54,437 nucleotides of DNA from contig FN649727.1 in NCBI GenBank assembly GCA_000310025.1, forward strand, positions 6,975,069 to 7,029,505, written 5' to 3'. The stretch's first letter is position 1. Each line of letters begins with the position of its first letter. This document shows positions 48,012-54,437 of the stretch, piece by piece. The notes below the pieces were generated by a model. It did no database searches. It saw only the letters and a list, made by a program, of their open reading frames with translations, and had not been told where the DNA came from. This DNA is from Ectocarpus siliculosus (taxonomy: Eukaryota; Sar; Phaeophyceae; Ectocarpales; Ectocarpaceae). Position numbers and translations under genes: made by a program.

Positions 48012-51000
48012 TCATCGACTTGGGCTAACTTCGCCTCCCTCGTCACCACTCCTTCCTTCCCCACCCCCGGCATCATCATCATCTGCGGCCGACGAAAACC
48101 TCGCGTCGCCGGATATCCCCTCGCAGCCCTTCGGCGTGAACCAAACCAGCGAGTATCTCTCGCCGGAGAACGGCCTCGTCCAGTGCCTTTGCGTCCACCC
48201 GTTGAACTCCAGGGGGCGGTACCGAATGTCCGCCTCCTCCCCTTCCACCACCAGCTCCCCGCGAACGTAGTCGCCTAGCCCGACGATCAGGCTCCTGCTC
48301 TGACCGGCCCCGCTCCCGCTGTCCACGTGTGGCTTGAACCTGGCATTCCTGTTGACGGCGATAGTGGTTGACGGGGGTCGTTCGGGAAGCAAGGCCGCCT
48401 CTAGCTCGAACGCCGCTCTCGCAAGCTCCGCGAATAGGCGGTTGCCGCGCGGGGGTGGGCAGGGCGGCGGGAAGGCGCCGAGGGTGAATGACCCGGACCC
48501 GCCGCCGTCGCCGCCGCCGCCGCGTTGCCGATCTTCCTGCTCTTGTTGCCCGTCGGGTTCCGTTGCCGCGGAGGCGTTCTCCTCGCCAACGGTTCTCGCC
48601 ATCGCCGGTGGTGCTTCCTCTGCTAGTGCCGTTTTGTCGGAATCACGGCCTTTTGCGCAGCCCGCCAAATCAGTCTGCTTGCTGCGCCCAGTACCGGAGC
48701 ACATCTCGTCTGCTCTGTCGCCCCTCTCCCCGAAGATGACCAAGCTTCGCGATGCCGTGCTCGTGGGCCACTGCCCCGAGGCGCTGGCTTCTCTCAGCAG
48801 GCCCAAAACCTTGGCGTAGAGCACGGGCGCCTCCTCAAGCGACGAGAGATCCTCGGCGGACAACGGCGCCCCGTCCGCGCCTGCGCCCCTGCGCGACTCG
48901 TCTCTCGAGCCGCTCCTCCCTCCACAACCGTCCTCCTCCCCCCTGCCTTCATTACTTCTATCCCCCTCCAGGTCCCCTGCTCGCATGTCGGAGACCTGGA
49001 CTTCCCGCCCAAGCTTGACGGCGCCCGGCTGGAGAACGTCCTTCAGCCAGCCAACCCCGCCATCCCGCTCCTCCCACCACCTCGCCGCGCTGTCGAGGAC
49101 CTGGCGCCGAAACCTGGCGCCCTCAGACCTCGAAGCCTCGTCGCTCCACCCCTCCAAGGGGCGGCAGCCCCGCTGCTCCGCGCCCGGCGACATGCAGACG
49201 CCTTGCCCTCCGACGCCGAGCCTCATCTGCCAGCCCGAGTAACCAACCTCGGCGAGCGAGCACGGGGCGGCGGGGGCCAGGGGGACCGGCAGGAGGTCTT
49301 CCTGCCGCGTCGGGTCGATCGTGGCCGCGATGCCCTCGGCTGAGATGAGGCCCCTCGCCCCGGCCACGGCGAGGGCTACCATGCCCCTAACCTGCGGGCA
49401 AAATAGCGGTGGCGGCAAGGGCTGATGCGTCATCATCGTTTTGCTTATATTCTGGCCGCAAATGTGACTTGTTTGATTCGTTGCTGTATCAACAAGACCA
49501 TGGAACTATATCGAACGGGTACTGTAGTCTTTTCAGTGGTTGCATGAATATTTTGCTGAAACCCTGGCGCACACTTTCAGGGTTCTTTCCTCGGTTCGTG
49601 ACGGAGGTCGACACACCCTCACCTGCTGGCTCATAAACGCGTCGCCGTTGATAGAGAGGCAGACGTAGTCCGCGCCGCTCGCGCCTGCGTCGCCCCCTTG
49701 CGATGATGATGGTGATGACTGGATGACCTCCATCGCGTAGAAGCGGAAAAGGCGGCGCAGGGAGGACGGGCTGTGGGGCAGCGCGCTCGCGCTGAAGTTG
49801 TGCCAAAGGGGACACCGCCGCCGCGTGCCGTCGTGTTCGCCGTTGCAGTGTCCGAAGGGCCTGAGCCCCCGCGCTCGTAGGCGTCTCAGCAAGGGGATGA
49901 GGTTCTCCTGTCCCCGGGGTGGCCCTTCCCAAGGGCCCTCCGCCGTCTCGTCGAGCATCCAGGCCGGCAGGAGGTACTCGTACCGCCGTCTCTTTGCGTG
50001 GATCTGTTAAGGGTTCGACATGCGCGTGAGCAAAGTGTTGGTACTTCGTTTCGACAGCAGTGCTGGCTGCAAACTGAAGCGTGATTGCGCAGAATATGCA
50101 CGTCAGAAGCGGTGTGGTCAATAACAAGGCTTGATTCCAGACATCGCGACATATCAGCGCCCCCCCCCGCTTTGCTCTATCCTCTTGCTTACGCTCATTG
50201 GACACCGACCAGTCATATTCTTCCACGTCATGCTTCCTGCGTCGTCTACACGGTTACACAGACGAAGCCGGCACGACAGAAGGAAGGGTATCCCTCAAGT
50301 GTTGCGCGACAGCCGCAAAACAAATGGATTCCTCACACGTTGCAATATAATTTACGACAAAGAGAGAACGGCTGCCAAGTAGGACATACCTCAGCGTGGA
50401 ACGTCGAAGGCACAGCCATCCGCCCGAGGAGCCGAATCGCTTCCCTCGCGTTCCCGTCGCTGTTGTCGAGGGCAGCGTTGGTGTCATCGAGCCACTTTCG
50501 TATACCCTCCTGGGGTACCGTCGTCGGTGCTCTGAGGCAGATGGTATCAGCTCTGGTAGCGGTGGTTCAGGGACGGGGGTCGTTGGCGGGGGGGTAGAGA
50601 ATAAGTTGGCGGCTTGGTGTGTCAACGGAAACTGCTGTTGTTGTTGGTTGTTTGTAGCATCAGAGGCTCCGAGGCATGTGTGTGTGGGGGGGGGGGCACG
50701 CCACGTCTCTCGTTCCAGGTGTTCCGGAACTACGTACTACTATTTACTAGAAATTTATCGTATGTTCGAACAGCTGCGTACCCCATACAAGTAGAACTTA
50801 AACGTATCGGCTGGGCTGCTTTCGGCGGTGATGTCTACTCGATCCGTGTATACGTGTGCCAGTAGTACAGGTGTATTCCACCTGGGCACCATCAGACAGC
50901 AGTATCAAGGCGTTCTTCCTTCGGGTTCCTCCCGCCGCAACGTAGCACAACAACGCCCACGACTGCTGCAATTTCTACTACCATCAAGTCCTTCGCTGAG

Positions 51001-51602
51001 CAGCAGGCGCACTCCCCCCCCTCCCCGATTTAACAATCGAATCAGGTCCAAACTCACGTAGCGCTGACCTCCTCCTCCTGCGCAAGCAGAGGGCACGTGC
51101 GGGAACCCACCGACGAGGCTTGACTGAAGCCCCCCGGTCGACTACAGTAGGACTGCTGCTGGGAGCTACCTCCGCCCTCGCCGCCTGCATCCCTCCGCCT
51201 CTCCACCTCGATGCCCATGGCCTTCAGCACAGAGCTTGCCGCGCTTGCTCCACCCACAGCAGCAGCAGTCCCACTACTCGTGCCTACCGGCGGCGTCGGC
51301 ATGTTATACGTGTCCGATGTTGGAGGTGTTACCGCTCCCTCGCCTCCTTTGTCGCCCGCCATGAGACGGGAGTCGTACCCTACGACGAGGAGGACCTTTT
51401 CGCCGTAGTCTTCGCGAGGGGCCGGGCAGGTCGCGCAGGGCCTCTCGAGGTGGCGGAACATCGCACTCCTCGTGGGGAACCGCTCCGAGCAGAAGCTGCA
51501 TGTCGTGACCGGCGGGGCGCGTTTGGGTGAAGGAGGTGTTTCCGAGGTTCGGTCTCCCGCTGCCGCCTCCGAAGGCGCTACCTCTGGGTCCAGAGGCGTC
51601 AT
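48012..51602 (-). CDS. Zinc finger-pseudouridine synthase-like-2OG/Fe(II) oxygenase-like fusion protein
   Basis: Four exons: 51602-51058, 50531-50390, 50003-49623 and 49391-48012, phases 2,0,0, 815 residues. A C2HC finger (Cys35, Cys38, His51, Cys56) leads. A TruA/PUS1-type pseudouridine synthase fold follows: KVLLVVGYDSR, EVSATAPTTVPQ, KRRRYEYLLPAWML, PLWHNFSASALPHSPSSLRR, and FMSQQVRGMVALAVAGARGL with PVPLAP and VGYSGWQ. Such enzymes isomerise uridine to pseudouridine in tRNA and other RNAs. A long low-complexity linker leads to a 2OG/Fe(II) dioxygenase-like end with HVD (His711, Asp713), distal His759 in QRHWTRPF and Arg768 in GERYSLVWF. The catalytic (G/S)RTD motif of the synthase is not recognisable; LLAQEEEVSA occupies its place, putting Glu at the Asp position. 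The ATG at 51602 is the first in frame; an upstream exon is possible. The oxygenase assignment rests on the HxD...H...R pattern only. Confidence 0.82.
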
Positions 51603-52112: not shown

Positions 52113-52654
52113 ATGGAAGACGGAAAGGGCAACGTTGGAATGGACCCCGACATGGACGATGATTCAGACGACGAGGTGTCTCTGCTGGTCGTGGACGAGG
52201 ATGAACTCAACACCACCTTGAACGAGGCTGGTATTCAAGTCAAGGTGAGTTGTTGCATGACAGACAGGTAGGCATGGATTGTGCTGGAAATGTACCTCTA
52301 CCCCAGCCCATAGAGTCTCGCCTTTGGGGCGGCTATTTAGCTCTGTCTCTGGCATTTGAACTGCCCCGTTGTGCACATGTGATGTACAACGACTGCGTGT
52401 GGTGTGTGTACGAAGTGAGTGGCGCACTATTTTTTTTTTTTAGAACAAACTCCTCAACAGGCCTTTCGAATACGTTCCGAGTTCCGACGCCGCTACAAGT
52501 AAAGCTTTTGTCTTCCTTGCTTCCTTGCAAACCTTAATCTTCCCTTCCGCGCCAGGTGGATGCGGAAGGAAGCTCTGTAGAAGTGAGCGTCCTGAGCGAG
52601 GACGTCTCTACCTTCCTGATGTTTGCCCCGGAGGAGGAGTACCTCGGCGCCAAG
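52113..52654 (+). CDS. Acidic protein of unknown function, first two exons
   Basis: Exon 1 (52113-52244) starts at the ATG of MEDGKGNVGMDPDMDDDSDD and ends at a GTGAGT donor. Exon 2 (52556-52654) follows in phase 0 and ends at GTGAAT. Together they give 77 residues, very acidic, with an open DEDELNTTLNEAGIQVK / SSVEVSVLSEDVSTFLMFAP pattern that suggests a folded beta-rich segment. I do not recognise the family. Later exons are not resolved: an open frame at 52999-53184 ending VENFVKSYPAHPSR then TAG could be a terminal exon, but I cannot prove it. It is head-to-head with the fusion gene and may be co-regulated. Confidence 0.55.
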
Positions 52655-54437
52655 GTGAATCACGTTTTGCTCTATATTCATGAGCTTTCAACAGGACGGA
52701 ATCATACCGCGGCTGTAGTGCGCGAGCGTTGTAGTTGGGGCCTCGAGTAATTAGCACTTGTGCAACCAAGAGAGGTCTGTTTGGGTGTCTGTGTGATTGT
52801 GAGGATGGGTGATTGGGGAGTTTGAGGCGGGGCAGAGGAGAGGTAGGTGTCGCACACACCCGAGCAACGCAAGGTACTGTACACAACGAGAGCTTGTGCA
52901 TGTGTTTCATCTGGTTTCGTCAACAGCAGCGTAGTGCACGGTACGTAAGATACCTCAATTTAGAAGAAACTACCCGTAGGTGTACTCCAGGTGCGACTGA
53001 TCCCGTCTGCTCGGAACACCGACTGGAACGGTTGCCGAAAAATCACATCAGCTTGTATTCGGCTCCTATGTTCTCAAAGCCTCCAAACATCGCTCGTGCA
53101 TCCATCCCTTGTCGACCTGTCCGGACTCCGAGAAGAAAAATGAAGTGGAGAACTTCGTGAAAAGTTATCCCGCACACCCATCTAGGTAGAGCAAAGCGTG
53201 TTACACAGAGCGTGTTACATGTGCTCTTGATGTAGATCTGACAGGTCGTTCCTCGCGCATACATGCTGTACCCGGACGCAATGGGCCCTCTAAGATTTTA
53301 CGCTTTCCACACACAAGAGTTGTTCAGGGTACGTGTAGATACAGTACCCTCCCTCCGCTCCGAAATTCTCCAAGAAAAAAAAATGTGAGTCGGAGAGATG
53401 GCATCTGCGGGTTTCTTGGTGGTTTTTGTTGCACCCCGGCGCGATCTCTCCGGCCGGTGCCATCTCTCCGATCCCGTTGCCGAAATGAAAATTAATCATG
53501 CCATCTAGCTTCTTCGAGGCACCCCGGTGCAATCTCTCCGACCGGTGCGATGCCCAGTGAATTTTCACACAGCGGCTCAACTATTGTAGCACTACAATTA
53601 TTGTAGTGCTCCGACGGTGTTCTTTGCACACTGCATACACCCCGGTGCCATCTCCCCGACCGGTGCTGTCTCTCCGCCTCTGAAGTATTGGTACCAGGGC
53701 AGATATTCACAAGCAAACGAATGTGCGGCGTACCGCACTAAGAACGCAGGCTGGGTACGTAGAAGCTTTCTATGCAGCGAGTGGTCATGGGCTTGAAATC
53801 GAGTTGGTTGTTGCTTAACAAGGACAACAAACCATGTGGTTTCCATCTGCGATACCCGTAGATACGGTACAGCAGTATCAGGTTGTCTCCCGCTTTCGTT
53901 TCGGTCTTGCTCTACGAATACTAGAACGCAAGAAGCAGCCCATTAGATTTACTCGCCTAAGGTGGGGGTAGGTCATGGCTTGCACGTTGTGTACTTGGAT
54001 GGTGTACGGCTTGCACCTACCATACGGACTGAATGAAAGCAACAGGCATTTCCGCGTGAACTGCGCCGGCCGTATATGCATACATGAAGGTGGCGCTCCG
54101 CTGACACCGTCACCACATGCAAAAGGGGGGCACATGTAGCTGCTTACGGCAGCTCAGAAAAAGCTCAATGTTGGTGGGGAAGTACAATGAAAATCATGCT
54201 GTTCCTCTTGTTTTGTTTTCGTACCCCGGTGCCATCACTCCGACTCTTACGGCACACCAACGTACTGAAGAACTGTTCTTGCGTGCACCCTTGGGGGTTC
54301 TTCGCACGATAAGCATCTATCCCTGAATTCCCCTTCTATCGACCTAGAAAAACTGACACGATGCATTCGCCCGCGTGGCCGTCGTTGTCCTTGCTTGTGG
54401 TGCCTTTCCGATTAACCTTCCCCCCCTCCCCCCCCCA
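52655..54437. other. Right-hand region: possible 3' exons and repeats
   Basis: Beyond a possible terminal exon at about 52999-53184 I see no coding segment I can support. The stretch carries four copies of a CACCCCGGTGCCATC motif (listed separately), one exact TACAGCAGTA (53868-53877) and a poly-C run at the very end. Confidence 0.45.
53429..54251. repeat. GCACC-motif repeats, second cluster
   Basis: Copies at 53429-53475, 53518-53552, 53637-53681 and 54222-54251 share CACCCCGGTGCCATCTCTCC followed in most by GACCGGTGC. Their reverse complement resembles the GCACCGGT...ATGGCACCGGGGTGC motif of bactofilin intron 2. Because the motif length is near a multiple of three, translated frames repeat APVGEIAPG-like phrases; this is not evidence of a protein. 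Confidence 0.7.

What the first reader, a model, noticed from the sequence alone, without database searches (positions are those of the whole stretch)
48012..51602. Fusion of a C2HC zinc finger, a TruA/PUS1-like fold and a 2OG/Fe(II) oxygenase-like domain
Sequence: one phase-consistent four-exon model carries all three parts. Known: TruA/PUS1 enzymes make pseudouridine; 2OG/Fe(II) dioxygenases include RNA and DNA hydroxylases and demethylases (AlkB group, TYW5). Inference: a single protein that recognises an RNA and both isomerises and oxidises a base, or that uses the inactive synthase fold only as an RNA clamp for the oxygenase. I do not know a described protein of this layout.
Basis: partly seen in the sequence, partly recalled or inferred. 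Interest (0 to 1): 0.8.

Follow-up and report, generated by a model that had tools for sequence, protein, structure and literature searches.

The report
Dead pseudouridine synthase fused to oxygenase
One gene in this eukaryotic genome encodes an RNA-modifying enzyme fold that seems to have lost its own catalytic residue, joined to what looks like an iron-dependent oxygenase, suggesting that an old RNA-binding enzyme was reused to bring a different chemistry to RNA or to the ribosome.

Summary
The four-exon, phase-consistent minus-strand gene (51602-48012, 815 aa) stands as a sequence model; there is no transcript evidence. One open exon carries both the end of a TruA/PUS1-type pseudouridine-synthase domain and the C-terminal oxygenase-like domain. 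The synthase part is recognised by profile (PF01416 above cut-off; human PUS1). 'Isomerises and oxidises' is not supported: the required catalytic Asp is missing (SRTCPLLAQEEEVSA), while the four other TruA-type loci found in this genome keep RTDxGV. The libraries scanned do not recognise the C-terminal domain. It nevertheless scores above all 150 shuffles and 146 other ORF pieces against a profile of PF13640 2OG/Fe(II) proteins (hhalign probability only 48-60%), with H711, D713, H759 and R768 on the H, D, H and R columns. Single-sequence AlphaFold was uninformative. The C2HC finger is below Pfam's cut-off. Best reading: a synthase pseudoenzyme binds RNA and positions a 2OG oxygenase; substrate (RNA base or ribosomal protein) unknown. 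Titles and abstracts listed in eight paper searches described no such fusion.

The parts
51058..51602 (-). Exon 1: start codon, C2HC finger, synthase N-terminal part (residues 1-181 plus 2 nt)
   Evidence: donor TAC|GTGAGT
51426..51503 (-). C2HC zinc-finger-like motif (residues 34-59)
   Evidence: zf-C2H2_4 over residues 34-54, E 0.0025, 18.8 bits, below the cut-off of 27
51058..51104 (-). Place of the catalytic loop of TruA/PUS1 (residues 167-181, SRTCPLLAQEEEVSA); Thr169 or Cys170 stands where TruA has the nucleophile Asp, depending on a one-residue register
   Evidence: MAFFT alignment to 24 TruA rows; no RTD in any minus-strand frame of 51700-50390
50390..50531 (-). Exon 2: residues 182-229, leading into TruA motif IIa
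   Evidence: splice sites
49623..50003 (-). Exon 3: residues 230-356; Tyr motif (HAKRRRYEYLLP) and the first part of the PseudoU_synth_1 match
48012..49391 (-). Exon 4: residues 357-815 and stop; end of synthase part, linker and oxygenase-like domain in one open frame
49239..49670 (-). PF01416 PseudoU_synth_1 match, residues 341-407 (interrupted by the intron 49622-49392)
   Evidence: 26.5 bits against a cut-off of 23.3, E 9.7e-6, spliced protein
48444..49226 (-). Linker, residues 412-672; no Pfam domain recognised
48105..48443 (-). 2OG/Fe(II) oxygenase-like domain, residues 673-785; H711 (48329-48327), D713 (48323-48321), H759 (48185-48183), R768 (48158-48156)

Best explanation
The gene encodes one 815-aa protein with a probable N-terminal C2HC finger, a TruA/PUS1-type domain that has lost the catalytic aspartate but keeps the Tyr-bearing motif IIa and the motif III region, and a C-terminal 2OG/Fe(II) oxygenase-type domain with the HxD...H iron triad and the 2-oxoglutarate-binding Arg. 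Shown: the continuous gene model, the synthase homology, the missing Asp, the oxygenase signature. Inferred: the dead synthase fold (with the finger) binds a structured RNA, probably a tRNA- or rRNA-like stem, and holds the oxygenase over its substrate. Most likely that is a base of the bound RNA; a protein of the same RNP is the main alternative. The oxygenase would then hydroxylate or demethylate it using O2, Fe(II) and 2-oxoglutarate.
For: A single open exon joins both halves. Synthase homology: PF01416 above cut-off, PUS1 chain 4nz7 E 1.4e-4, TIGR00071 E 1.5e-9 though far below its own cut-off (37.9 against 142.85 bits); TruA profile 14.5 bits, best of 1000 shuffles 8.1. Missing Asp: no RTD in any minus-strand frame of 51700-50390. 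The four other TruA-type loci found in the genome keep it: C59 RTDTGVHS, C37 RTDRGVSA, C6 RTDKGVHA, C1 RTDKGVHA, so the cell need not depend on this copy for a TruA-type activity. Oxygenase: hhalign 29.0 against the 14-row PF13640 profile and 30.7 against the 18-row one; best of 150 shuffles 20.5 and 17.4, best of 146 viral-locus ORF pieces 18.1 and 18.7. H711, D713 and H759 fall on H, D and H columns in 18 of 18 rows, R768 on an R column in 17 of 18 (MAFFT). The motif H.D-x(25,75)-H-x3-P-x(2,3)-G-x-R occurs in 7 of 300,000 shuffles and in none of 1180 viral-locus ORFs (244,867 residues). RNA binding without catalysis has precedent: the supporting figure S4 of PMC10631681 is titled as wild type and D134A yeast PUS1 stably binding an RNA oligo; T. 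brucei mt-LAF3, a PUS orthologue, is needed but its catalysis is not (review passage).
Against: The curated libraries scanned do not recognise the C-terminal domain, and no relative was found in the viral, prokaryote, phage or plasmid collections, so conservation of the triad could not be tested. The hhalign probabilities are only 48% and 60%, and its default alignments cover 54 and 47 columns; 107 columns are aligned only at a permissive setting. With plain hmmsearch the 14-row profile was matched or beaten by 0 of 300, 6 of 5000 and 4 of 5000 shuffles, and a five-row subfamily profile by 125 of 5000 shuffles and 14 of 874 ORF pieces. Both AlphaFold jobs were low confidence (pLDDT 41.4, 37.5) and the fold search gave nothing usable. 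Human PUS1 D146A binds RNA about tenfold more weakly, so loss of the Asp may also weaken the proposed clamp. No transcript evidence.
Confidence: 0.45

Rival explanations
1. Same protein, but the oxygenase acts on a protein: the dead synthase docks on rRNA or a pre-ribosome and the P4H-like domain hydroxylates a ribosomal protein or translation factor, as OGFOD1/Tpa1 do (recalled).
For: The oxygenase domain aligns with a PF13640 (prolyl-4-hydroxylase-like) profile; the AlkB family was not hit; mt-LAF3, a PUS orthologue in T. brucei, is needed for mitochondrial rRNA levels without its catalysis (review passage).
Against: PF13640 is broad and its substrate class cannot be read from the signature; the Pfam model itself was not hit. 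No profile of real nucleic-acid oxygenases (TET/JBP, AlkB) was compared in the same way, so the P4H-like flavour is not a choice between profiles.
Confidence: 0.25
2. The C-terminal domain is a degenerate or non-enzymatic beta-sandwich, or the gene is decaying; resemblance to 2OG oxygenases is superficial.
For: No library hit, no relatives, low-confidence models, modest hhalign probability.
Against: All four catalytic positions aligned, 0 of 150 shuffles and 0 of 146 ORF pieces as good; open frame, with third-position GC the highest of the three positions in 3 of 4 blocks of exon 4.
Confidence: 0.15
3. Two transcripts or two genes: a synthase-like gene and a separate oxygenase gene lie in one frame by chance or by an unrecognised intron in the linker.
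For: No RNA-seq; a long linker; long antisense ORFs show that open frames are cheap in this GC-rich stretch.
Against: 459 codons open in the right frame, 0 of 3000 Markov sequences.
Confidence: 0.08
4. The synthase part is active with a displaced or different nucleophile, and the protein both isomerises and oxidises.
For: Motif IIa and motif III are kept.
Against: No Asp at the place and no RTD in any minus-strand frame there; the Asp is strictly required in PUS enzymes (PMC10631681 passages).
Confidence: 0.05

Closest known systems
TruA / PUS1 family pseudouridine synthases (PF01416, TIGR00071; human PUS1, yeast PUS1)
   Same: C-terminal half of the domain, motif IIa Tyr, motif III region
   Different: Catalytic Asp and the RTDxGV loop missing; extra finger-like motif and C-terminal oxygenase-like domain
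2OG-FeII_Oxy_3 / prolyl-4-hydroxylase-like oxygenases (PF13640)
   Same: HxD...H triad, downstream Arg, GEL strand, profile alignment
   Different: Not recognised by the Pfam model; fused to a synthase domain; shorter stretch between the GEL strand and the distal His
Trypanosoma brucei mt-LAF3
   Same: A pseudouridine-synthase orthologue whose catalysis is not needed for its role (review passage in PMC11469412; the original paper is not held)
   Different: No oxygenase mentioned in the passage seen
AlkB / ALKBH RNA and DNA demethylases (PF13532)
   Same: 2OG/Fe(II) chemistry, possible RNA substrate
   Different: No PF13532 match; no second Arg of RxxxxxR (recalled motif)
TET/JBP (PF12851)
   Same: HxD...H...R order of a nucleic-acid oxygenase (recalled)
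   Different: No PF12851 match; no real members could be obtained for a deeper test

Membership tests
TruA/PUS1 pseudouridine synthase | Family HMM match | tested here: met
   PF01416 26.5 bits against 23.3; TIGR00071 E 1.5e-9 but 37.9 bits against an equivalog cut-off of 142.85
TruA/PUS1 pseudouridine synthase | Catalytic Asp in the RTDxGV loop | tested here: not met
   SRTCPLLAQEEEVSA in its place; no RTD in any minus-strand frame of 51700-50390; so not filed as an active synthase
TruA/PUS1 pseudouridine synthase | Motif IIa Tyr and motif III region | tested here: met
   FHAEIHAKRRRYEYL and the FMSQQVRGMV stretch align with the 24-row TruA profile
2OG/Fe(II) oxygenase superfamily | HxD...H iron triad and downstream Arg in register | tested here: met
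   columns H, D, H in 18 of 18 rows and R in 17 of 18; controls
2OG/Fe(II) oxygenase superfamily | Double-stranded beta-helix fold | tested here: inconclusive
   AlphaFold without relatives: pLDDT 41.4 and 37.5; VIA-align rows uninformative
PF13640 (P4H-like) | Match to the Pfam model | tested here: not met
   No hit up to E 10 (HMMER filters drop most matches above about 0.1)
AlkB (PF13532) | Match to the Pfam model; RxxxxxR | tested here: not met
   No hit; the residue six after R768 is Phe; the motif is recalled
TET/JBP (PF12851) | Match to the Pfam model | tested here: not met
   No hit
C2H2/C2HC zinc finger | Match over the curated cut-off | tested here: not met
   18.8 bits against 27 for exon 1 alone, 16.3 for the whole protein; the Cys/His spacing itself is present

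The most novel reading that the evidence does not exclude
A new kind of RNA oxygenase in which a pseudouridine-synthase pseudoenzyme has become the targeting module: the dead TruA fold still flips or presents a uridine or neighbouring base of a tRNA/rRNA stem, and the fused 2OG domain oxidises it, giving an unknown hydroxylated or demethylated nucleoside.
Probability: 0.25. Interest if true: 0.78.

Novelty: new variant of a known kind. Interest (0 to 1): 0.55.

Why it matters
A pseudouridine synthase without its nucleophile, fused to an oxygenase, would show how an RNA-modification fold is turned into an RNA-targeting module. It would point to a nucleoside or ribosomal modification in this lineage that can be looked for directly by mass spectrometry of RNA and ribosomal proteins from a knock-out.

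Tried and rejected
Relatives of the C-terminal domain: viral contigs with the domain, with a relaxed alignment and with three DNA patterns; a tblastn of the domain against L010-L053 gave only short weak pieces, and the two loci are not relatives. Viral contigs with the synthase part: none. Genome contigs: one hit, L010, 48 residues resting on NGWTQRHW, in a stretch where a 278-aa ORF runs on the other strand; I judge it a chance match. Phages: none; plasmids: five records at E 2 to 9, not followed. I do not expect these collections to hold algal nuclear genomes, so this says nothing about absence in algae. Own genome: no second copy of the domain, one candidate scored; PF12851 no match; AlkB-type matches elsewhere. 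A weak synthase match on C18 (E 0.54) was not followed. PF12851 in 249 bacterial genomes: nothing, and no control rang, so uninformative.

Structure: both AlphaFold jobs had one sequence and failed in confidence. I draw nothing from it.

2OG profiles, rows kept and dropped: searches gave 33 different loci (L057-L089). A loose regular expression asking for H.D/E ... H ... R/K found a candidate in 19 of the 33. I dropped 5 by eye (L059, L060, L071, L084, L086, wrong-frame picks) and used 14; so these rows are themselves picked for the order of the residues. A stricter motif later added L059, L060, L085 and L089 in another frame (18 rows; L065 left out), so the 18-row profile is selected for the motif more strongly and the 14-row result is the fairer one. 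With plain hmmsearch the 14-row profile gave 0 of 300, 6 of 5000 and 4 of 5000 shuffles as good and 0 of 874 ORF pieces; the 18-row one 0 of 5000 and 0 of 874; the 5-row subfamily one 125 of 5000 and 14 of 874. The 146 pieces are every sixth of those 874, which come from ORFs of L011-L053 and include frames that need not be genes. TruA rows: each of the 24 loci cut out (30 genomes matched) held an open frame with the RTD motif, by which the rows were picked.

Rejected readings: active bifunctional synthase-oxygenase (Asp missing); AlkB member (no HMM match, no second Arg); split gene (one open exon).

Full report
What is in the sequence. On the minus strand four exons (51602-51058, 50531-50390, 50003-49623, 49391-48012) join without a frame break into an 815-residue protein. 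The three introns (526, 386 and 231 bases) are GT-AG and poorer in GC than the exons. Exon 4 is open for 459 codons and carries the last strands of the synthase domain, a linker of about 260 residues and the C-terminal domain, so the fusion of these two does not rest on a splice prediction; none of 3000 Markov sequences made from it was stop-free over that length. Caveat: antisense frames also run open for up to 238 aa in this 68% GC exon.

Synthase part. PF01416 is matched above its cut-off at residues 341-407 of the spliced protein; the exons given singly did not match it. phmmer aligns residues 192-398 to human PUS1 (4nz7) at E 1.4e-4. TIGR00071 gives E 1.5e-9 at 37.9 bits, far below its equivalog cut-off. 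A profile of 24 bacterial TruA proteins gives 14.5 bits, with 8.1 the best of 1000 shuffles, and aligns the motif IIa stretch (EAIRLL...FHAEIHAKRRRYEYL) and the motif III stretch (FMSQQVRGMV...). In the loop that carries the nucleophile the MAFFT alignment sets GSRTCPLLAQEEEVSA against GRTDTGVHALGQVVHL with Thr169 opposite the Asp; moved by one residue it would be Cys170. On either register no Asp is there, and no RTD occurs in any minus-strand frame from 51700 to 50390, so a missed exon in that stretch does not explain it.

Other TruA-type genes of this genome. Family searches of G000 (189 Mb, 492 contigs; matches come exon by exon and counts are lower bounds) found four other loci, on C59, C37, C6 and C1. 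Their frames read RTDTGVHS, RTDRGVSA, RTDKGVHA and RTDKGVHA. Of the five found, only the window gene lacks the Asp. The Asp is strictly required in PUS enzymes; yeast PUS1 D134A is inactive, and a supporting figure is titled as both forms stably binding an RNA oligo (passages of PMC10631681). Human D146A is inactive and binds about tenfold more weakly (passages of PMC3983220).

C-terminal domain. Pfam, NCBIfam, PHROGs and the PDB sequences do not recognise it. hhalign scores the window domain 29.0 (probability 48%) against the 14-row profile and 30.7 (60%) against the 18-row profile. The best of 150 shuffles scored 20.5 and 17.4, and the best of 146 pieces of viral-locus ORFs 18.1 and 18.7. 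The default alignments cover 54 and 47 columns, a permissive one 107. In a MAFFT alignment H711, D713 and H759 fall on H, D and H columns (18 of 18 rows) and R768 on an R column (17 of 18). The motif H.D-x(25,75)-H-x3-P-x(2,3)-G-x-R appears in 7 of 300,000 shuffles. Among six-frame ORFs of 100 aa or more it appears in the window only in this gene (and in L001 and L054, copies of the same place), in none of the 1180 viral-locus ORFs (244,867 residues), and otherwise only in loci fetched for PF13640. I wrote that motif after seeing both the query and the bacterial rows, so it is a consistency check rather than a blind test. A five-row subfamily profile did not separate the query from shuffles (125 of 5000 as good). 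The fold itself remains unshown.

Zinc finger. C35-x2-C38-x12-H51-x4-C56 is present; the best Pfam model is below its cut-off.

How it most likely works. The synthase fold has kept motifs that lie at the RNA-binding cleft (recalled) and lost what makes pseudouridine; an oxygenase with an intact iron and 2OG signature follows after a long linker. The simplest mechanism is RNA-directed oxidation: the dead synthase and the finger bind a structured RNA, and the oxygenase modifies a base of that RNA or a neighbouring protein of the same particle. The first is my leading reading. The second (a ribosomal-protein hydroxylase in the manner of OGFOD1/Tpa1, recalled) is a serious rival, because the domain resembles the P4H-like group, the only one for which I had real sequences to compare. 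RNA binding, enzyme activity and substrate are inferences.

What is known. Dispensable catalysis in a pseudouridine-synthase orthologue has precedent in T. brucei mt-LAF3 (passage of the review PMC11469412; original paper not held). Eight paper searches for a synthase-oxygenase fusion or an algal context: the titles and abstract beginnings listed (15 of 120 papers listed; 10 of 31 listed), 77 and 78 describe none, and searches found no papers. The library holds open-licence papers only and I saw listings, not texts. I know of none either (recall).

Verdict. A well-formed gene model with an unusual, apparently undescribed layout: a pseudoenzyme plus a probable oxygenase. New variant of known parts; interesting, not proven in function.

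Noticed in passing
window 52113-52750, + strand: A divergent reading frame (starting MEDGKGNVGMDPDMDDDSDDEV..., followed by a second exon-like frame) begins about 510 bases from this gene's start codon, so the two may share a promoter region; no Pfam match for the frames given.
   Followed up: partly
G000 contigs C59, C37, C6, C1 (L006-L009): Four other TruA/PUS-type loci in the same genome, each with an intact RTDxGV catalytic motif.
   Followed up: yes
G000 contigs C13, C16, C19, C26, C459: Separate AlkB-type (PF13532) 2OG oxygenase matches; on C13, C26 and C459 over the family's cut-off.
   Followed up: no
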